Positions 3,942-18,425 of a DNA stretch of 64,000 bases are shown here, piece by piece. The DNA comes from a virus. Within the stretch, counting starts at the first letter, position 1. Every line of letters starts with the position of its first letter. A model generated the notes under the pieces. The model did not search any database, was not told where the DNA came from, and saw only the letters and a list, made by a program, of their open reading frames with translations. The stretch spans positions 43,590-107,589 of IMG/VR virus record IMGVR_UViG_3300009431_000980; one strand, given 5' to 3'. Both the position numbers and the translations under genes were made by a program.

Positions 3942-5045
3942 CTATGATTGGACAAGGTGGGCAAATAAGTGATTAAGTATTTCTACTTTAGTCGTCCTAT
4001 TATGGAGTAAGTCGTCTATATCATCGGAGTTTATATACATAATCTCCCCCAGCTGATTACTTATGACCCCCAATGATTCCTCCTGCGAATCTTTAAACAC
4101 AACAAAATCAGGGAATCTAGTATTTCCCTTTATGATCACCATCGGACCATCCCGAGTACCCCATATCCACATACCATTTCCAAAGATAGGATAGAATTCA
4201 TAGAAACTTTCGGCGGCCTCTTTACTACTAAATGGGCCAATGTAGGAGGAAGTCCCCTCCGGCGAAATGGATGCCTCTACAGCCTGTTTAATTTGAAAAG
4301 CCCAGCGGGGCTTCACCCTAGAGCCCACCGTTATCCGGAAATCGCCTCCTCTTGTCTCAACCCCACATGAAGGCCGACAACATACCAAATCTCCAGCCTT
4401 CACTGTATAGTCAGTTATATAACTAGTAAGTAAAGGTGAGTTGCGTGTTATACTACTATAGGGTATGTAAAACCGATCGTGGGTTGATATAGAACCTACA
4501 ATAAGTTGGTAGGCTTCTGCTTTAATTTTATCTACAAATACATCTAAAGGTATATCTTCCGGGGGTGGAACACCACCTAAAGAATCTTCTCCCACGCTCG
4601 TTTCATCCTCAGGAATAGCAATAGGTGGACGCGCAGTAGTCTTGGCCCGGAAGTCTTTAGCTATGAAGTCAACGGCCTCTATAATTGGATTCCCGGTTGG
4701 TGTGGCCCCATGGGAGAGGGTGGAGAAGTGTACATCCTCAAAGATATATTGGGCGAGGTGCAAGTCCACCCCATGCCAATATCTGAGGGTAAGTTCAAAC
4801 GTTATCTCCTCCTCAAGAAGCTCCAGTTGATCTGCTTCCTTAAAGTTAATCATCATCTGGCCTTGAATCAGCTTTTCACCAACAGCTACGGCATCAAAAG
4901 TCTTGGAGCGGTAGCCATAGAGTGGCATCTTAACTACAGAGGCATTGAATTGGAAGGAGGCTACATCTAATTCAAATAATGTAAGCCGCCGGCTACCTTT
5001 TTTACTGGCCACCCAAGCTGTAGCTTGTGTTCCGCTATAGTACAT
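3942..5045 (-). CDS. Tail-tube-like structural protein with C-terminal extension
   Basis: 367 residues. The N-terminal 150 residues have tube-like strand pairs (VKMPLYGYRSKTFDAVAVG, then LIQGQMMINF) resembling phage tail tube and tube-initiator proteins. A Pro-rich linker follows (about 140-170). The C-terminal part contains SSKEAAESFYEFYPIFG, somewhat like a SPOR repeat. The start ATG overlaps the previous stop (TAATG), implying translational coupling. It is the third tube-like gene in a row and may form a specialised part of the tail. Exact role unknown. Confidence 0.45.
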   Translation of the reverse strand: MYYSGTQATAWVASKKGSRRLTLFELDVASFQFNASVVKMPLYGYRSKTFDAVAVGEKLIQGQMMINFKEADQLELLEEEITFELTLRYWHGVDLHLAQYIFEDVHFSTLSHGATPTGNPIIEAVDFIAKDFRAKTTARPPIAIPEDETSVGEDSLGGVPPPEDIPLDVFVDKIKAEAYQLIVGSISTHDRFYIPYSSITRNSPLLTSYITDYTVKAGDLVCCRPSCGVETRGGDFRITVGSRVKPRWAFQIKQAVEASISPEGTSSYIGPFSSKEAAESFYEFYPIFGNGMWIWGTRDGPMVIIKGNTRFPDFVVFKDSQEESLGVISNQLGEIMYINSDDIDDLLHNRTTKVEILNHLFAHLVQS

Positions 5046-5959: not shown

Positions 5960-8900
5960 TTATATTGTCCATACACGCTTGTCTACTGACTTTCTATTGT
6001 AATCCAACTATCGTACCTGAAATATCATCGATATCTAGTTTGTCCGCGTCGGATTCAACTGGTTTCCACCATGTTACTTGCTGCTTCTCTTGTTCAAGAG
6101 AATGGACTATCTCTTCTACCTCTTTCTGAGGTAGCCGTGCGTTTAGAAGGGAAATGAATTCCTTTTCTCGAATAGTATGTCCTTGATCGGATAGATAACT
6201 AATGTATCTGTTATACTTCCTGCGAAGAAAGAGGTCACCCTTATCCCTATACATTATTGCCATTAGGAATATAGATGCAGATTTCCTATACCAGACATTC
6301 CATGTATTGGTGCCTTTCTTATTACGAAGACGACCCATTGGAAAGCCATAATACCTCTTTAACTTTGCTTGAATCCATCGAAGGAAATTGTATGAACCTG
6401 ATGTGAAACTAAGCATAGGAGCTCGGCCCTTAGCATTAATACTGAAGGATCCATCTCCATCAAAGTAACCACGTAGGAAGTGAGAGAAGAACTTCTTAGG
6501 GACAGGAAGCTTACCAAGGACAAGAGACTTACGAAACGGAACCTTAAGCTTCATCAGTCTTTTGGCTATGTAGTTGCTAACAAACCTCAGATGATATGTA
6601 CCATCACTGTTACTATAAACACGCTCTGGTACGCCCAACAAATTGGCTAATCGCCTAATGTGGTCTTCATCATTTAGCGTTATATCAATAACCATTATAC
6701 CACTATCCTTACGCTTCATTATACACCCATCAGCAACGATCAGGCCATAAACATAAGCCATCTCCTCACTCCAATGGTCAAAGAAGTCTACCTTTAAGCC
6801 CCATGCACGTCCGCGTCCCATTACTTTCAGGCCCTCTCGGTTTGCCTTACTCACAATCTGACGTCTGGGACGATCCGGTAATAGTTCATCAATACGCGGA
6901 TTCCAGCTATAGTTCTCGTGAAGGATCTCAACTTCTTTGTTAGTCCATAGTTTCATACTATTCAGTCTCTACAGGGCTTGTCAGACTCCCGGCAGTAACC
7001 GGGACGAAACACCCCTCGGGATTCCCCAGTAAGGGTTCCCCGATTAAGCACGGTTTAATGTGACCCAGCCCGTCTTGGGTAAAGCCACAAACGTCATTTG
7101 TGCATTTACTCCTACTCTTTCGGTAGGTATGGACTATCTCATCATCCCACATAAAGTGGGAGCCAGGCGTATTATCCGGCTGACAAAGCACTCCGGATCC
7201 ATCCATAGTGGATGAGTCTCTGCAGGGCGTGAACCCCTCAGGATTAGCATATCCCGTAGGACTTAGCCTCCCCTGATATAAGCCTGGTTTAGGCATCTCA
7301 ATTACTCGAGAAGAGAGGCAGTTGTGTCGCCTCTTGGACATTGTCATCACGACTTGTTATCATAAGGCCGTTTAAACCTTATCTCTCCAACTTTCATTGG
7401 AGTCCGGACTATATCATCACCCACGTGGGGTGCTGGGCGCTCTTGGCTTGAATCATTATTGTCAGAGATCATTCGGACTTTGTACAACATTGATGGTATT
7501 ATAAATGGCTTGACGATCTCAATAAACTTCTTTGCCTCTTTTGTACCACAGCGAATCCTGTACTTTCCTTTTCCCTTGACTATTGTAAAGCGTATTCCAT
7601 GGACATCACGAAAATAGTCCACTATTACTTGGTTTTCATCCCAGCTTACATATGTGCTGGTACATAACTCCCAAGCGTGAACCTTTCCGTTGCGGCGTTT
7701 AGTATACAAACTACCATCATCCATATGCCATATTGCGATACCTTGTGGAGTAAGCATATCAAGGATTCTACGGGTAACAACCTTTTCCCCATCCTTGTAC
7801 AACCAATCTCTAAGCACCTTAAAGTACTTATTTGTCTTGCTACACTTCACACCTGGGTATCCATTATTGTTATACTCAACGATTCTAGGTTTCTTGCCAC
7901 CTAAAGCAGAATGGAGGAGCTCGGTTTTATGCTCTAGATATGCTTTCTGCTTCACTGAGTGACATAGCCTAAGTACGTAGGATTTGGTATTCCACCGTTT
8001 GTCTGTACTGACACCTATGTAACCATCTCCTATACACATACCTAAGAGTATGCTACGTTTGTCTTTATTCATTTTCGTTACACACTTTGGTGAACTATTA
8101 TTATATGATTCAAGCTAGTCTCTACACCTTCCGTACTATCTAAGCCCAGTACGGCTTGGCTCGGAGTTACCTTATGCAATAGCACTTAGGCTTCCTCCGA
8201 ATTCACCCAGTTTGTCAATCCCAATCTCTTGGGAAAGCGGCTGATTGTCAACCGACACACCAGTTCCCTCTGAAATGAGGTGAACTCCATGTATTCGCAT
8301 TGTTGTCGCTGACCCAAACTCGTTAACCTGTATTGTTACCATAGCGGCTCTTTATCCGCTACTTCTTCAGGTTTCCCTGAAGCACAGACTATATCATCAC
8401 CCCGAAGGGGTGCCGGGAGCTCGTGCATCTCGTTATTGTTGGGACTCAGAGATGTAGTCGTTGCACCTTCCACGCTATCAAAGCCCAGCGTGGCTTGGCT
8501 CAGTGTTGCCATATCCCAGATTTGACTGGTACTTAGGGATCCACTGAATTCACCCGGTGTTTCACTCAGAATCGCTTCTGAGAGCGGCTGTTCAATAAGA
8601 GATTCAGATACTAACTGTTCTTTATCGTATTTAAGATTACTCATCTCTTATTTAGGTTTACCGACGAGTGTAATATCGAACGGTGGAATCTGGTCACTAT
8701 ATGATGGAGACTCCAGGGTGTAGTCACTACCTACATCTGAGGCATCGCCTAAAGCACGAGAAACACCCGCCGACCCTGCCCAATCATCTGGTTTGGCTAC
8801 ATAGCGAGCACTCCGCATGATGTCGTGTAGGGCTTGGCGGTCAAACATGGTCAATATAAGTGCTGAATTATCAATAACTTACGTTATCTTCTATTCCTGG

Positions 8901-11900
8901 ACTATATCTTCTTGAACTTGTGTGCCAGTGTCATAGACTCGGTAATTGTATGATACTTCTGGTATATCAATTACATCATCACCTATAACACCCGCATATT
9001 TGTTGTACTTAGTCAGTAAGCATAGAATATCTGGATGGCCCTCATACATTCTCTTCAAGATCTCGAGAGAAGTAGCCTTACGATACCGCAGATCCCAGAC
9101 CTTGTTTCTTTTCCTGGGCCTTAGTCTGCCACCTGGGAGATCCCAATAACGACTGATTCGGGCCTCGATTGATTTAAGAAACTGCCTCGATCCACCAGTA
9201 AATGTGATACTTGGTGTGGTGTTATTGGATATCTGAAGACAACCATCTCCATCAAAGTAGCCCCTCAAGAAGTGAGCGAAGAACTTCTTAGGTACGGATA
9301 CTTTCTTGAGTTGTGTTGATTTACGCTCAGACAAGCCAAGCTCCTTCAATCTCTCTACCATATACTTACTGGTAAACATTACCCTATACATCGGATGTAT
9401 CATATTCAGGTACCCGCCCTGAGGTAAGGCATTAAGCCCTTGCTGTCCATAAATATACCCTCTTGAGATACCCAACTCATCACATACTAGTTCTAGTATG
9501 TATGGGTCACTTTGGGCAAATGTGATCTTATAAACACTAACCCCATCAACCCGGGTTGGTGGTGCATATATGTTTCCATCCGCTGTGAAGAATCCTAGGA
9601 TGTATGTCATGTTAGGGGTCCAATGATCAAAATAGTCAGCCCTTAGAGTATCTATCCTACCTCGCCCATCTCTCTTCAGGCCTATATTATTAGCCTTCTT
9701 TATTACCTGATGTGCAGACCTGTTAGGAAGTAACATAGCTGTCCTTGGATTCCAGGAGTAATTATCTCTCAGGATCTCAGTTTCTTCTTGTGTCCAGTTC
9801 ATATTCTATTAGTTCAAGTCCGGCGTTTCATGGGCGGATAAATCCATCCCATGATCCCACGGCTGTGGGATAGTCTCTACAGGGCTCGTCATACCCCAGG
9901 AGTTTCACCTGGGAGACACCTGGTTTTATCCAAGTGCGTACCTTATAATGCATAGAAGGAACCTCACTTACGTAGTGAGTGATAATACTAAAGAACCTGT
10001 CATGTGATTCCTTGCGTATGTAAACACGATTATCACTCCAGACATTGATCTTAATCCCATAAACGTGATCCATGTATTTTGCTACACGAAGCATATCTTC
10101 TTCGCAGAAAGCATACGCGGATATAACTACTGCCTCCTCAACATCGTAGCTACCATCATCCATGAACCAGGTAGCTATCGATAAAGGTGACAGCAGTTCA
10201 GTTAAGTCAATGTCACGTGGAATTCGTTTAACAGCTCCATTGTAGAAGCTGGTATGTATAGAAGTAAGCTCGGTACAGGCTAGTGACTGAAGTTTTACTA
10301 GGTTTCTTTTCTCATCATTCCAAATACTCGATGGAAGTCCAAGTATAGACTGTTTCCACTGTATATAATCTGAGTGACGATTAGAGTGTGTTACTGAAAA
10401 TCTATAATTCACACACTCTGGATCCTTAAATAAGGATCCGTCTCCTAGCAAAGTCCCATACAGTACTCTGACCCCGTCTCTAGTAATAGGACAGGATCTG
10501 TACTTCTTCCACTTTCCACTAGACATTTATGTTAGTTCCTATTGTTTGCATCACAGGTACGGATACCCCTCGGTATTAGCCTCTCGGCGTTCACCGATAT
10601 AAGCCGGATTTAAGCAGAGCCAATTCATCTCAACCCTGCGATTCCGCGTTTCAGTAATTCTCCATGGTTTCCCATGGGCCTGGACTGTTCCTTCAGCTGT
10701 TTGACCCTTGGAGGCCCAGCTGGCTAGCGTGCAGTCTCTACCGCCTCTGCATCCCGGTAACCAAGTCCCCGGGACCGTCTTTGCATCGAGATTGCCTTGG
10801 CGCCTCACGGCCCTGTAGGTTTCCTCGAACGAGCTAGCTTTTACAAGGGCAAACATCTATTTACCCTTCGAGTAACTCACGGCATCTGATTTCAATTCAT
10901 CCTAACCTTTCGGTAGGTATGGACTATCTCTTGCTGTCTAAATATAGTTAGTTGGCAGTCTGGCCGACTCGAGAGCCACCTTGAATGATCCGAAGTGGCG
11001 TATGGCCAGGGTTGGACTTATGCAATCCTCAGTGTAGTGATACTTTACGGCTGGGAAACCATCCCACGGCCCAGTCTGTTCATAGAACTCTTGTAGGTCG
11101 AGGACTATTAGCTTCCGCTTCTCACCTGAGGACAGCCTAGCGTTCAGCCGCCTATGAAAGTTGGATGGTGTCTCACTACGATCAAAGACTCCATCCCAGC
11201 CCATAGGCTTCTTGCGTTCCATACTTGGTACATCCTCGACTAGACTGAGGAGCCTCTTGGAGGCTTCCCTGTTAAGATGAAGGTAGTACCGCCTAATAGC
11301 GTGTCCTGGTTTGCGCTTGATGGCAGCCTCAATGTTCCACCGGTCTCTAAGCCATCCCTGGAGGCGTTTGACGTCCTCAAGGGTGAAACTATCGGTGCTG
11401 ATCTCTATTATCTGACGGTGAACATGATAGGTGCCATCATCATAGTACCAGGAAGTCAGTGTCGAGGAGTCAAAGTCATCCAGATAGTCCGGTATTATCT
11501 TCTGGCCATCTGGGTACCATATCTGCCGTAGATCGGACAGTTCAGTAGACGTATTGGTGTAAATTCGATAAACAGGACCACAGTCCGCCTCATGTCCTTT
11601 AATGCCCAACGTGCGTGCCTCTTTATATACCCACTTCACATCAAAGTCCTGACTCATGATTGTTGCCTTCCACTCAAGGTAGGACTTGTCATCTTCTTTG
11701 TGATCTTCCTCATAACGACTATTATGCCAGCGTGTGTATCCATCACTGGCGGTATGATATTGGCACTTGCTCAAGTAACCGTCACCCAACAGACTACCAT
11801 TCAATAGCTGATGTGTTTGATCGTTCATTTAGACAGCTCCTGCGTATTGCTTCCGTTACCCTGTATTAGGGTCTTTCTCAACGGAGCCTGATCATTGCTG

Positions 11901-12169
11901 ATCAAGTCTCTACGGCTGCCACATAATGGGCTTGCCTCGGGATTGCCATAGGCCCACTGGCCCTTAGATTTCCCCGATATTAGCAGGAAAGGGCAAATCA
12001 TCTATTTACCCATCACAAACACCGGCCTCACCTCACGGTTTACCGAGAGTGAAAGGCCTTGCAGATTGCCTATCTCCACATTTCCGAATACCGCTTTGAT
12101 GTCCGAACCAGAGAAGGTCGTAAATGTCTTAGCAACATCGTTTGTACTTACATCAAACACATTACTCAT
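5960..12169 (-). CDS. Tail tube protein, eight exons split by seven group I introns
   Basis: I reconstruct one 549-nt coding sequence (182 residues plus stop) from eight minus-strand exons: 12008-12169, 10863-10892, 10633-10651, 8660-8862, 8251-8327, 7329-7349, 7083-7101 and 5960-5977. All junctions keep frame. The joined product matches the tube-protein pattern: GSDIKAVFGNVEIGNL, FVMG, SYSKG+KRGIAG+SLILTMFDRQAL, PPFDITLVG+VNEFGSATTMRIHG, EGTGVSV+DDNVQEA+QMTFVA+RVWTI. Each intron carries R/S core segments (GTAGAGACT, ATAGTCC). Most 5' exons end in U, paired to G in an internal guide, and the introns end in G. Translation without splicing stops after residue 55. AAGGAG precedes the start. The exon 6/7 border is uncertain by 1 nt but the product is the same. 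Confidence 0.82.
5978..7082 (-). mobile_element. Group I intron 7 of the tail tube gene, with endonuclease ORF
   Basis: 1105 nt between exons 7 and 8. The exon end GTGGCT pairs with the guide GGTCAC about 17 nt into the intron, with a terminal U-G pair. CTGTAGAGACTGAAT is the R-like core segment near 6960-6975. The last intron base is G, before CGTGTATGGACAATATAA. The endonuclease ORF lies after the R segment, between the two sides of P7 or in P8. The 5' part resembles introns 3 and 6 (AAACC, GCTTAAT, GAGGGGT). Confidence 0.75.
5994..6956 (-). CDS. LAGLIDADG homing endonuclease in intron 7
   Basis: 320 residues with two LAGLIDADG motifs, YVYGLIVADGCI (about 69-80) and HFLRGYFDGDGSF (about 163-175), so it should act as a single-chain enzyme. 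The N-terminal W-T-x-x-E helix region (residues 4-45, ending in a G-R-G-R segment) looks like a small helical DNA-binding module. It is a clear paralogue of the ORF at 8891-9802. The last codons run into the 3' part of the intron core. Expected role: cutting the intronless tube allele to spread intron 7. Confidence 0.85.
   Translation of the reverse strand: MKLWTNKEVEILHENYSWNPRIDELLPDRPRRQIVSKANREGLKVMGRGRAWGLKVDFFDHWSEEMAYVYGLIVADGCIMKRKDSGIMVIDITLNDEDHIRRLANLLGVPERVYSNSDGTYHLRFVSNYIAKRLMKLKVPFRKSLVLGKLPVPKKFFSHFLRGYFDGDGSFSINAKGRAPMLSFTSGSYNFLRWIQAKLKRYYGFPMGRLRNKKGTNTWNVWYRKSASIFLMAIMYRDKGDLFLRRKYNRYISYLSDQGHTIREKEFISLLNARLPQKEVEEIVHSLEQEKQQVTWWKPVESDADKLDIDDISGTIVGLQ
7102..7328 (-). mobile_element. 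Group I intron 6 of the tail tube gene, ORF-less
   Basis: 227 nt without a protein gene. CTGCAGAGACTCATCC (R-like) and GATGAGATAGTCC (S-like) define P7, followed by ATACCTACCGAAAG, nearly identical to the 3' end of intron 1. Exon 6 ends AGAGGC and pairs perfectly with GCCTCT ten bases in, which puts a C-G pair instead of U-G at the splice site. With an intron-terminal G the border shifts by one base, without changing the protein. Confidence 0.65.
7347..8072 (-). CDS. LAGLIDADG homing endonuclease in intron 5
   Basis: 241 residues. LGMCIGDGYI (about 9-18) and IAIWHMDDGSL (about 112-122) are the two catalytic-helix motifs of the intron-encoded LAGLIDADG family. The last ~35 residues are encoded by the ribozyme 3' core (the GATGATATAGTCC segment). 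The ORF ends at the final intron base and takes its TGA stop from the first bases of exon 6. Paralogues: ORFs at 9828 and 10938. Confidence 0.85.
   Translation of the reverse strand: MNKDKRSILLGMCIGDGYIGVSTDKRWNTKSYVLRLCHSVKQKAYLEHKTELLHSALGGKKPRIVEYNNNGYPGVKCSKTNKYFKVLRDWLYKDGEKVVTRRILDMLTPQGIAIWHMDDGSLYTKRRNGKVHAWELCTSTYVSWDENQVIVDYFRDVHGIRFTIVKGKGKYRIRCGTKEAKKFIEIVKPFIIPSMLYKVRMISDNNDSSQERPAPHVGDDIVRTPMKVGEIRFKRPYDNKS
7350..8250 (-). mobile_element. Group I intron 5 of the tail tube gene, with endonuclease ORF
   Basis: 901 nt. Exon 5 ends GTGTCGGT; CGGT pairs with GCCG in CAATCAGCCGCT near the 5' end. R-like GGTGTAGAGACTAGC and S-like GATGATATAGTCC are present. The last base is G (AAGTCG before exon 6). 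The 5' 150 nt closely follow intron 4 (CAGCCGCT, GGGTGAATTC, CCTAAGT, GAGCCAAGCC, CTGGGCTT), so the two are siblings. Confidence 0.78.
8251..8659 (-). mobile_element. Group I intron 4 (8328-8659) with exon 5 (8251-8327)
   Basis: The intron covers 8328-8659 (332 nt). Exon 4 ends GTCGGT, the same hexamer as the end of exon 5; the guide CAGCCGCT lies about 80 nt in. GATGATATAGTC is the S-like segment, and the intron ends CAATACAG. It has no endonuclease. A 102-codon frame (8336-8644) crosses the RNA core and I do not regard it as a real gene. Exon 5 encodes VNEFGSATTMRIHGVHLIS and the following EGTGVS. Confidence 0.72.
8660..8862 (-). other. Tail tube exon 4 (largest exon)
   Basis: 203 nt encoding the second half of the tube core (LILTMFDRQALHDIM to PPFDITLVG). 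It is phased by the single T left from exon 3. It is the longest internal exon and the anchor from which the other junctions were derived. Confidence 0.85.
8891..9802 (-). CDS. LAGLIDADG homing endonuclease B in intron 3
   Basis: 303 residues. Motifs YILGFFTADGNI (about 67-78) and HFLRGYFDGDGCL (about 177-189). The N-terminus (W-T-x-E-E-T, NYSWNPRT, GRGR) matches the ORF at 5994-6956 closely, so the two are duplicated copies. The final residues EDIVQE are encoded by the intron S segment AAGATATAGTCC, so coding and ribozyme core overlap. Confidence 0.85.
   Translation of the reverse strand: MNWTQEETEILRDNYSWNPRTAMLLPNRSAHQVIKKANNIGLKRDGRGRIDTLRADYFDHWTPNMTYILGFFTADGNIYAPPTRVDGVSVYKITFAQSDPYILELVCDELGISRGYIYGQQGLNALPQGGYLNMIHPMYRVMFTSKYMVERLKELGLSERKSTQLKKVSVPKKFFAHFLRGYFDGDGCLQISNNTTPSITFTGGSRQFLKSIEARISRYWDLPGGRLRPRKRNKVWDLRYRKATSLEILKRMYEGHPDILCLLTKYNKYAGVIGDDVIDIPEVSYNYRVYDTGTQVQEDIVQE
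9828..10526 (-). CDS. LAGLIDADG homing endonuclease A in intron 3
   Basis: 232 residues. Motifs VLYGTLLGDGSL (about 21-32) and IATWFMDDGSY (about 116-126), matching the intron-encoded LAGLIDADG family of the intron 1 and 5 ORFs. The C-terminal ~35 residues are translated from the ribozyme R-side core (CTGTAGAGACTATCC), and the frame ends just before the second ORF at 9802. Which of the two enzymes mobilises the intron is unknown. Confidence 0.8.
   Translation of the reverse strand: MSSGKWKKYRSCPITRDGVRVLYGTLLGDGSLFKDPECVNYRFSVTHSNRHSDYIQWKQSILGLPSSIWNDEKRNLVKLQSLACTELTSIHTSFYNGAVKRIPRDIDLTELLSPLSIATWFMDDGSYDVEEAVVISAYAFCEEDMLRVAKYMDHVYGIKINVWSDNRVYIRKESHDRFFSIITHYVSEVPSMHYKVRTWIKPGVSQVKLLGYDEPCRDYPTAVGSWDGFIRP
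10633..10892 (-). mobile_element. Group I intron 2 (10652-10862) with micro-exons 2 and 3
   Basis: Exon 2 (10863-10892, 30 nt) encodes KSDAVSYSKG. Exon 3 (10633-10651, 19 nt) encodes KRGIAG plus one base. The 211-nt intron between them has the P1 hairpin AAGGGT / GCCCTT with a terminal U-G, P-Q-like GGCAATCTCGATGCAAAG, R-like GGTAGAGACTGCACG and S-like GGAACAGTCC, and ends ATTACTG. It has no ORF and is close to a minimal group I ribozyme. Confidence 0.75.
10893..12007 (-). mobile_element. Group I intron 1 of the tail tube gene, with endonuclease ORF
   Basis: 1115 nt. Exon 1 ends GATGGGT; GGGT pairs with GCCC 13 nt inside (terminal U-G). GGCAATCCCGAGGCAAG, CCGTAGAGACTT (R-like) and AGAGATAGTCC (S-like) are core segments, then ATACCTACCGAAAGG and a terminal G. 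The first 17 nt match the start of intron 2, so these two share ancestry. Confidence 0.78.
10938..11828 (-). CDS. LAGLIDADG homing endonuclease in intron 1
   Basis: 296 residues. LLNGSLLGDGYL (about 8-19) and LTSWYYDDGTYH (about 124-135) are the catalytic-helix motifs. Beyond the usual ~210-residue core is an extra C-terminal segment of about 75 residues (HRRLNARLSSGEKRKLIVL onward) not present in the intron 3 and 5 enzymes. The gene lies between the R and S core segments of the intron. Confidence 0.85.
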   Translation of the reverse strand: MNDQTHQLLNGSLLGDGYLSKCQYHTASDGYTRWHNSRYEEDHKEDDKSYLEWKATIMSQDFDVKWVYKEARTLGIKGHEADCGPVYRIYTNTSTELSDLRQIWYPDGQKIIPDYLDDFDSSTLTSWYYDDGTYHVHRQIIEISTDSFTLEDVKRLQGWLRDRWNIEAAIKRKPGHAIRRYYLHLNREASKRLLSLVEDVPSMERKKPMGWDGVFDRSETPSNFHRRLNARLSSGEKRKLIVLDLQEFYEQTGPWDGFPAVKYHYTEDCISPTLAIRHFGSFKVALESARLPTNYI

Positions 12170-17744: not shown

Positions 17745-18425
17745 TTAAAGAGCAAACCTTACGGGTTTGCTATCCCTGGTAATGGGTTCATCATCCCTCT
17801 CCTGCACCACCCGAGTAATGCCGGAGGAAAGGCCCATACTCACCAGAATTTGTTTGATTGTATCGAGTACACTGTCACGGGGATGTAATACGCGGTTGTA
17901 CCCGTGCTTTTCAATGTCCATAGCTTCACGAAGAAAAGCTTCTGCATTCTCCTTTGACATAGAGGCAGTTATTTTAGGTAGCTCCTTTGTAAGTTCTATA
18001 ACTGTCTTCTGCAATATCTGATAGGCCTTTGAGTTTTGGTCTCCATAAGTTAATGTACCTTTAGCAATGCTAGGATTCCTTGGAGTCCGTTTATTTGCCT
18101 TAACATCATCCTTATCCAACTCGGTCCAAACAAGTTTATCCTTTCGGCGTCCTTTAGATCCCGCTACCTTGTTCTTATCAGCCCACTTCTTATAACTATT
18201 CGCTACCTTTAATATCCCCATACCAATGGCCTTCTTAACTATATCCACAGCCTCACCAGGAATATCCTCAGTCCTGGCCCACCAGGACTCCTCCTCCTCG
18301 GGATTAAACCAATTCAACTGAAACTTAGTTGTTGGATCCTGCCACATCATCTGATTGGTTAGAATAACGTATTTCTTACTAAATTCCTTTTTGGTGGTAT
18401 TCTTTTGTTCTTTGTCAGTACTCAT
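17745..18425 (-). CDS. Unknown virion-region protein
   Basis: 226 residues, Lys-rich with many charged helices; contains TNQMMWQDPTTKFQLNWFNP. Not recognised. It is the first gene after the capsid terminator and before the Ig-like neck protein, with a 10-nt gap to the latter. A minor capsid or connector-associated role is likely from context. Confidence 0.55.
   Translation of the reverse strand: MSTDKEQKNTTKKEFSKKYVILTNQMMWQDPTTKFQLNWFNPEEEESWWARTEDIPGEAVDIVKKAIGMGILKVANSYKKWADKNKVAGSKGRRKDKLVWTELDKDDVKANKRTPRNPSIAKGTLTYGDQNSKAYQILQKTVIELTKELPKITASMSKENAEAFLREAMDIEKHGYNRVLHPRDSVLDTIKQILVSMGLSSGITRVVQERDDEPITRDSKPVRFAL

What the first reader, a model, noticed from the sequence alone, without database searches (positions are those of the whole stretch)
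5960..12169. A 549-nt tail tube gene split by seven group I introns
Seen: eight exons that join in frame into a tube-like protein, seven intervening segments with R/S-like core motifs, guide pairing to the exon ends, and G at intron ends. 5.66 kb of the 6.21 kb locus is intron. Known: phage genes with up to about three group I introns (for example in Twort) are documented. Seven in one small, high-copy structural gene is far beyond what I know. Tube protein would depend on seven correct self-splicing events, so splicing could time or limit tail assembly.
Basis: partly seen in the sequence, partly recalled or inferred. Interest (0 to 1): 0.95.

Follow-up and report, generated by a model that had tools for sequence, protein, structure and literature searches.

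The report
Phage tail-tube gene with seven introns
A 621-base phage gene for the inner tube of the tail is cut into eight pieces by seven self-splicing RNA elements, four of which carry genes for selfish DNA-cutting enzymes; phage genes with three or four such elements are known, but this is the densest case I could find.

Summary
On the minus strand, eight exons (162, 30, 19, 203, 77, 20, 20, 90 nt) join into a clean 621-nt frame for a 206-aa tail-tube protein; seven group I introns (5,555 nt) separate them. The gene ends at 5994, not 5960. An intron-free relative (L111, 68-71% identical) aligns without a gap at all seven junctions. A second relative (L102) has no intron at site 1 but has introns at exactly sites 2, 3 and 4. 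All seven introns end in G, can form P3/P4/P7/P8/P9 and have guides for their exons. The P7 3' motif occurs exactly seven times in the window, once per intron. Five intact LAGLIDADG homing-endonuclease genes sit in four introns; intron 3 holds two. Neither record of this phage has an intact copy of the gene; two tube-like paralogs follow it, as in a relative. This is a known kind of element at extreme density: published phage genes I found have at most four. Splicing is inferred, not observed. Intron 6 has an unusual 5' splice site (G at -1). That splicing times tail assembly is untested.

The parts
12008..12169 (-). tail tube exon 1 (162 nt, MSNVFDV...RPVFVMG)
   Evidence: homology
10893..12007 (-). 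group I intron 1 (1115 nt; P7.1/P7.2 present; HEG in P8 loop)
   Evidence: P1 GGGU/GCCC, P10 AAAU/AUUU, P3/P4/P7/P8/P9 pairs; site is empty in L102 and L111
10938..11828 (-). HEG1, LAGLIDADG_2, 296 aa
   Evidence: PF03161 1.4e-23
10863..10892 (-). exon 2 (30 nt, KSDAVSYSKG)
10652..10862 (-). group I intron 2 (211 nt, no HEG, no P7.1/P7.2)
   Evidence: P1 6 bp + P10 4 bp, core pairs; intron at same site in L102
10633..10651 (-). exon 3 (19 nt, KRGIAG + 1 nt)
8863..10632 (-). group I intron 3 (1770 nt) with two HEGs, one in the P6 loop and one in the P8 loop
   Evidence: core pairs; intron at same site in L102 scores 68.8 bits
9828..10526 (-). HEG3a, LAGLIDADG_2, 232 aa; its 3' end overlaps the P7 5' strand
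   Evidence: PF03161 7.6e-29
8891..9802 (-). HEG3b, LAGLIDADG_3, 303 aa; its 3' end overlaps the P7 3' strand
   Evidence: PF14528 4.1e-10; 40% identical to HEG7
8660..8862 (-). exon 4 (203 nt)
8328..8659 (-). group I intron 4 (332 nt, no HEG)
   Evidence: RF00028 77.3 bits, over gathering; intron begins at same site in L102
8251..8327 (-). exon 5 (77 nt)
7350..8250 (-). group I intron 5 (901 nt), sister of intron 4
   Evidence: RF00028 37.1 bits; similarity to intron 4 z=20.5; P1 CGGU/GCCG + P10 UGAU/AUCA
7347..8072 (-). HEG5, LAGLIDADG_2, 241 aa; its stop codon is the first three bases of exon 6
   Evidence: PF03161 2e-30; coordinates
7330..7349 (-). exon 6 (20 nt, completes V164, then DDNVQE + 1 nt)
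7103..7329 (-). group I intron 6 (227 nt, no HEG); 5' splice site has G, not U, at -1
   Evidence: RF00028 40.3 bits; P1 AGAGG/CCUCU
7083..7102 (-). exon 7 (20 nt, completes A171, then QMTFVA)
6084..7082 (-). group I intron 7 (999 nt)
   Evidence: RF00028 29.5 bits over its 3' part; P1 6 bp + P10 4 bp
5994..6956 (-). HEG7, LAGLIDADG_3, 320 aa; reads in frame through the 3' splice site and exon 8, sharing the tube stop codon
   Evidence: PF14528 2.7e-15
5994..6083 (-). exon 8 (90 nt) ending in the tube stop codon TAG

Best explanation
The tail-tube gene of a large contractile-tailed phage has been invaded at seven conserved sites by group I introns, spread by LAGLIDADG homing endonucleases. Inferred mechanism: a 6.2-kb pre-mRNA is processed by seven guanosine-initiated self-splicing reactions, each intron aligning its two exons by an internal guide (P1 with the upstream exon, P10 with the downstream exon), giving a 621-nt message for a 206-aa tube protein. 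The homing enzymes carry the introns into intron-free tube genes of co-infecting relatives, which keeps them; they are mobile parasites tolerated because splicing restores the gene. Shown here: exon homology and frame, empty and occupied alleles in relatives, intron cores, guides, terminal G, intact HEG reading frames. Inferred: splicing itself, endonuclease activity, mobility.
For: Joined exons make an uninterrupted 621-nt frame, gap-free at all seven junctions against intron-free homologs and the closest one, L111. L102 lacks intron 1 and has introns at the identical sites 2, 3 and 4, with guides matching its own, different exon sequence (AGAGGU/GCCUCU there, AAGGGU/GCCCUU here at site 2). 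RF00028 hits in four introns here and two in L102. Core pairings. Guide pairing combined p 3e-6 to 1e-4. Five LAGLIDADG genes above Pfam cut-offs. Two records, 99.95% identical over 22.7 kb with no difference inside the locus. No other copy of the gene. A fold model of L111 matches contractile tube proteins in the PDB.
Against: No RNA data. I1, I2 and I3 get no RF00028 hit of their own. Intron 6 breaks the near-universal U.G pair at the 5' splice site. P10 is weak at I3, I4 and I6. Introns 1 and 2 (partly 3), and introns 4 and 5, have interchangeable guides, so accurate splicing is not guaranteed. The fold model is of moderate confidence (pLDDT 69).
Confidence: 0.92

Rival explanations
1. The introns are a regulated switch: splicing, and its competition with HEG translation, delays or limits tube production, or makes a tube variant by exon skipping.
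For: The reading frames of HEG3a, HEG3b, HEG5 and HEG7 run through core strands and HEG7 runs into exon 8, so a ribosome translating them would disrupt that intron's core; guides of I1 and I2 are interchangeable and skipping exon 2 (30 nt) stays in frame. Exon skipping is documented in Twort (PMC3073962) and in the SIOphi terminase (PMC11878797).
Against: No expression data; skipping any other single small exon breaks the frame; the intron set differs between relatives and L111 has none, so there is no conserved regulatory need.
Confidence: 0.12
2. The gene is a decaying pseudogene: introns piled up because a paralog has taken over as tube.
For: Two tube-like genes directly downstream.
Against: All eight exons are open, in frame and 68% identical to L111 over 200 residues with the family's conserved residues kept; relatives carry this gene together with the downstream paralog and KLEB27-3 has all three.
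Confidence: 0.04
3. Assembly artefact or chimera.
For: Metagenomic origin.
Against: Two records with differences elsewhere carry the identical locus; the relative L102 has introns at three of the same sites.
Confidence: 0.01
4. Most introns splice as proposed, but one or two (most likely intron 6) splice poorly, at a cryptic site, or only with a protein helper. Compatible with the best explanation for the rest.
For: G at -1 of the intron 6 5' splice site; no U-ending alternative keeps both the frame and the conserved residues (read).
Against: Its P1, core and terminal G are otherwise good: RF00028 40.3 bits, fold z -3.1.
Confidence: 0.2

Closest known systems
Twort phage gene with three group I introns (Landthaler and Shub 1999, as reported in PMC3073962)
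   Same: several similar group I introns in one phage gene; exon skipping seen there, possible here
   Different: three, not seven; here five LAGLIDADG genes and internal exons of 19-30 nt
crAss-like Zeta-group major capsid gene in five fragments (PMC7886860)
   Same: structural gene split by several group I introns, in phages also rich in inteins
   Different: four insertions; here seven in 621 coding bases
Bastillevirinae polymerase and terminase introns (PMC11878797); Jug phage nrdD in four fragments (PMC12363816)
   Same: core genes with up to three insertions, splicing shown by RNA for many introns
   Different: fewer introns per gene, different host genes
Tail tube gene gp026 of Bacillus phage vB_BauM_KLEB27-3
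   Same: same family and gene order: sheath, tube, tube-like, tube-like
   Different: no introns; about 41% identity

Membership tests
group I self-splicing intron | conserved core with P3, P4, P7, P8 | tested here: met
   all seven; RF00028 in four
group I self-splicing intron | Rfam RF00028 at or above its gathering score | tested here: inconclusive
   one of seven (I4); three more below it with E <= 2e-4; three no hit
group I self-splicing intron | intron ends in G | tested here: met
   seven of seven
group I self-splicing intron | U at the end of the 5' exon paired with G | tested here: inconclusive
   met in six; not met in intron 6, which has G paired with C
group I self-splicing intron | internal guide pairs with both exons (P1, P10) | tested here: met
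   combined p 3e-6 to 1e-4; weak alone at I3, I4 and I6
group I self-splicing intron | guanosine-dependent self-splicing | not testable with these tools
   needs RNA
group I subgroup IA | P7.1/P7.2 stems between P7 and P3' | tested here: inconclusive
   present in I1, I3, I6; P7.1 in I4; region holds an HEG in I5 and I7; absent in I2 (and sequence)
LAGLIDADG homing endonuclease | Pfam domain above cut-off with two acidic motifs in an open frame | tested here: met
   five proteins; motifs GDG/DDG or ADG/GDG read in the sequences
LAGLIDADG homing endonuclease | site-specific cleavage of the intron-free allele | not testable with these tools
   needs protein
phage tail tube | sequence family, position after sheath, tube fold | tested here: met
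   phrog_9206 1.4e-36 (labelled major head protein in PHROGs); synteny with annotated tube; Foldseek hits to contractile tubes for homolog L111
phage tail tube | Pfam Phage_tube_2 at its cut-off | tested here: not met
   19.1 bits against 27 for exons 1-5
phage tail tube | present in virions as the tube polymer | not testable with these tools
   needs proteomics

The most novel reading that the evidence does not exclude
The seven-intron array works as an RNA-level control of tail assembly: competition between splicing and translation of the endonucleases whose reading frames run through the intron cores (HEG7 even into exon 8) sets when tube protein appears, and interchangeable guides yield an in-frame tube variant lacking exon 2.
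Probability: 0.1. Interest if true: 0.85.

Novelty: new variant of a known kind. Interest (0 to 1): 0.66.

Why it matters
One intron per 89 coding bases, with internal exons of 19-30 nt, is the densest group I intron load in a phage gene I could find, in a gene that is probably essential and needed in quantity. With an intron-free relative (L111) and a partly invaded one (L102) it gives a natural series for watching intron invasion of one gene, and a test of how many self-splicing events a high-output transcript can bear. It also shows how gene callers lose such genes: the tube appears only as fragments.

Tried and rejected
Options for intron 6 with U at -1 were enumerated by hand: none keeps both frame and conserved residues. 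A twintron in intron 3 was considered because of its two HEGs; only one core was seen. Same-site introns in L102 were expected to be orthologs: L102's site-3 intron instead resembles introns 4 and 5 here (z 11.5, 8.7) more than intron 3 (2.9), and its site-2 intron appears to have P7.1/P7.2, absent in intron 2. Searches with sheath, tube 2 and HEG7 alone returned only the second record of the same phage; the aligned sheath query gave L102's contig, L111 and L112. The bacterial-genome scan gave one remote MAG contig. The last viral-contig scan used a pattern that was not taken from the data, an error of mine; it carries no information. A profile search of PDB sequences found nothing. My simple core descriptor picks a wrong P7 register in I2 and I5 and is weak evidence. 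Some helix strings were mis-registered (I4 P4, I5 P3 and P4) and were re-read from the sequence.

Full report
What is there. The window is positions 43590-107589 of a 107,589-bp virus record. On the minus strand, between the tail sheath gene (15031-12374) and a tube-like gene (5953-5045), eight short coding pieces alternate with seven longer segments. Using intron-free homologs as guide I placed the exons at 12169-12008, 10892-10863, 10651-10633, 8862-8660, 8327-8251, 7349-7330, 7102-7083 and 6083-5994. Joined, they give 621 nt with one start, one stop and 206 residues.

Protein evidence. Exons 1-5 joined hit phrog_9206 at 1.4e-36 and intact genes in many viral contigs, the best 80 at 42-56% identity. 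An alignment with six intron-free homologs has no gap at any junction. The closest intron-free gene, L111 (IMGVR_UViG_3300032524_000092), is 71% identical over the 185-residue match, 136 of 200 aligned residues overall, and continues without a gap across each of the seven junctions. Of 187 held loci with this gene (many redundant), only those from the two records of this phage and from one other contig are split. Bacillus phage KLEB27-3 has the gene annotated as tail tube in the order sheath, tube, tube-like, tube-like, the order seen here. A model of L111 (pLDDT 69, moderate) matches tubes of contractile injection systems, Hcp and phage tails in the PDB. PHROGs calls the family 'major head protein'; position and fold argue for tube.

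Intron evidence. All seven segments end in G and six follow a U. Rfam RF00028 finds I4 at 77.3 bits (over the gathering score), I6 at 40.3, I5 at 37.1 and I7 at 29.5 bits; in the rest of the record it finds nothing. Helices P3, P4, P7, P8 and P9 can be drawn in all seven (a few strings were off by a base and were re-read). The 3' P7 motif A[AT]G[AG]NA[TC]AGTC[CT] (N = A, G or T) occurs seven times on both strands of the window, once per intron, against 0.9 expected; it was written from these introns, so this shows specificity, not independent discovery. P1 plus P10 pairing with the ligated exons is better than for other positions of the same CDS, combined p 3e-6 to 1e-4, strong at I1, I2, I5 and I7, weak alone at I3, I4 and I6.

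Relatives as natural controls. L102 (IMGVR_UViG_3300002231_000721) is 85% identical in exon 1. Its gene has no intron at site 1 (VFVMGNPDAISYSRG is continuous) but has introns filling exactly sites 2 and 3 and one starting at site 4, where the contig ends inside a homing endonuclease of another family (HNH_repeat, PF18780). Its site-3 intron scores 68.8 bits, over the gathering score, and its site-2 intron 20.6. At site 2 the exon and the guide differ together: AAGGGU with GCCCUU here, AGAGGU with GCCUCU there, all pairs kept. So three insertion sites are seen occupied in a second phage, the first is seen empty there, and all seven are empty in L111. RF00028 finds no intron in the records of 13 other relatives, most of them fragments.

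Homing endonucleases. Five intact LAGLIDADG frames lie in four introns: HEG1 in I1 (P8 loop), HEG3a (P6 loop) and HEG3b (P8 loop) both in I3, HEG5 in I5 and HEG7 in I7 (P7.1/P7.2 region) (placement read from the sequence). HEG1, 3a and 5 are one family (23-26% identical), HEG3b and 7 another (40%). Distant relatives occur in many phages, including crAss-like ones. HEG5 uses the first bases of exon 6 as its stop codon and HEG7 reads in frame through exon 8 to the tube's own stop codon. Introns 4 and 5 are sisters (z 20.5) and share guide and target (CGGU); introns 1, 2 and 3 all sit after GGGU. L102's site-3 intron resembles introns 4 and 5 here, not intron 3. This suggests that introns have moved between sites of this gene and that sites were invaded more than once; it is an inference from short sequences.

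Copies and assembly. A second record of the same phage (IMGVR_UViG_3300009314_000003, 147,988 bp) is 99.95% identical over 22,655 bp, with all 11 differences in a 31-bp patch outside the locus. Neither record holds another copy of the tube gene, only the paralog at 40% and 28% identity over parts.

How it most likely works. Each intron aligns its exons by its guide and removes itself; the resulting message makes the tube. The endonucleases spread the introns among related phages through conserved codons of the gene. Splicing order, accuracy and any effect on timing are unknown. The guide matrix shows that introns 1 and 2 could use each other's 5' sites; skipping exon 2 would delete ten residues in frame. 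Intron 6 has G at -1 with a good P1 (AGAGG/CCUCU); this is rare for group I introns (general knowledge) and remains unexplained.

Novelty. Published cases found: three introns in a Twort gene (PMC3073962), up to three in Bastillevirinae genes (PMC11878797), a capsid gene in five fragments in a crAss-like phage (PMC7886860), nrdD in four fragments in Jug phages (PMC12363816). Seven in 621 nt exceeds these; the library lacks many subscription papers, so a higher number elsewhere cannot be excluded. The kind is known; the degree and layout are new.

Noticed in passing
G001:C1:63491-76669 (L193:1492-14670); its start lies at about window 2709, minus strand, and it runs off the window's left end: A 4392-aa tail ORF with five intein-like insertions by their N- and C-terminal motifs (four stretches by Pfam Intein_splicing) and a Cas4-like nuclease match (TIGR00372, below its cut-off)..
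   Followed up: partly
G001:C1:139783-143952 (L194:1784-5953, minus): Adenosylcobalamin-dependent ribonucleotide reductase with two intein-like insertions; the phage is heavily loaded with self-splicing elements..
   Followed up: partly
L103, about 18000-18327: Intein start in a tape-measure-like gene at a DPYC site similar to the DPFC site of the fifth intein of this phage.
   Followed up: no
window 7325-7335: Intron 6 5' splice site has G instead of U at -1.
   Followed up: partly
window 4754-4784: Eleven base differences between the two records of this phage, all within 31 bp of the third tube-like gene; the rest of the 22,655 bp compared is identical.
   Followed up: no
window about 12310-12285, minus strand: GC-rich hairpin between sheath and tube genes, terminator-like by eye but not found by the consensus scan.
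   Followed up: partly
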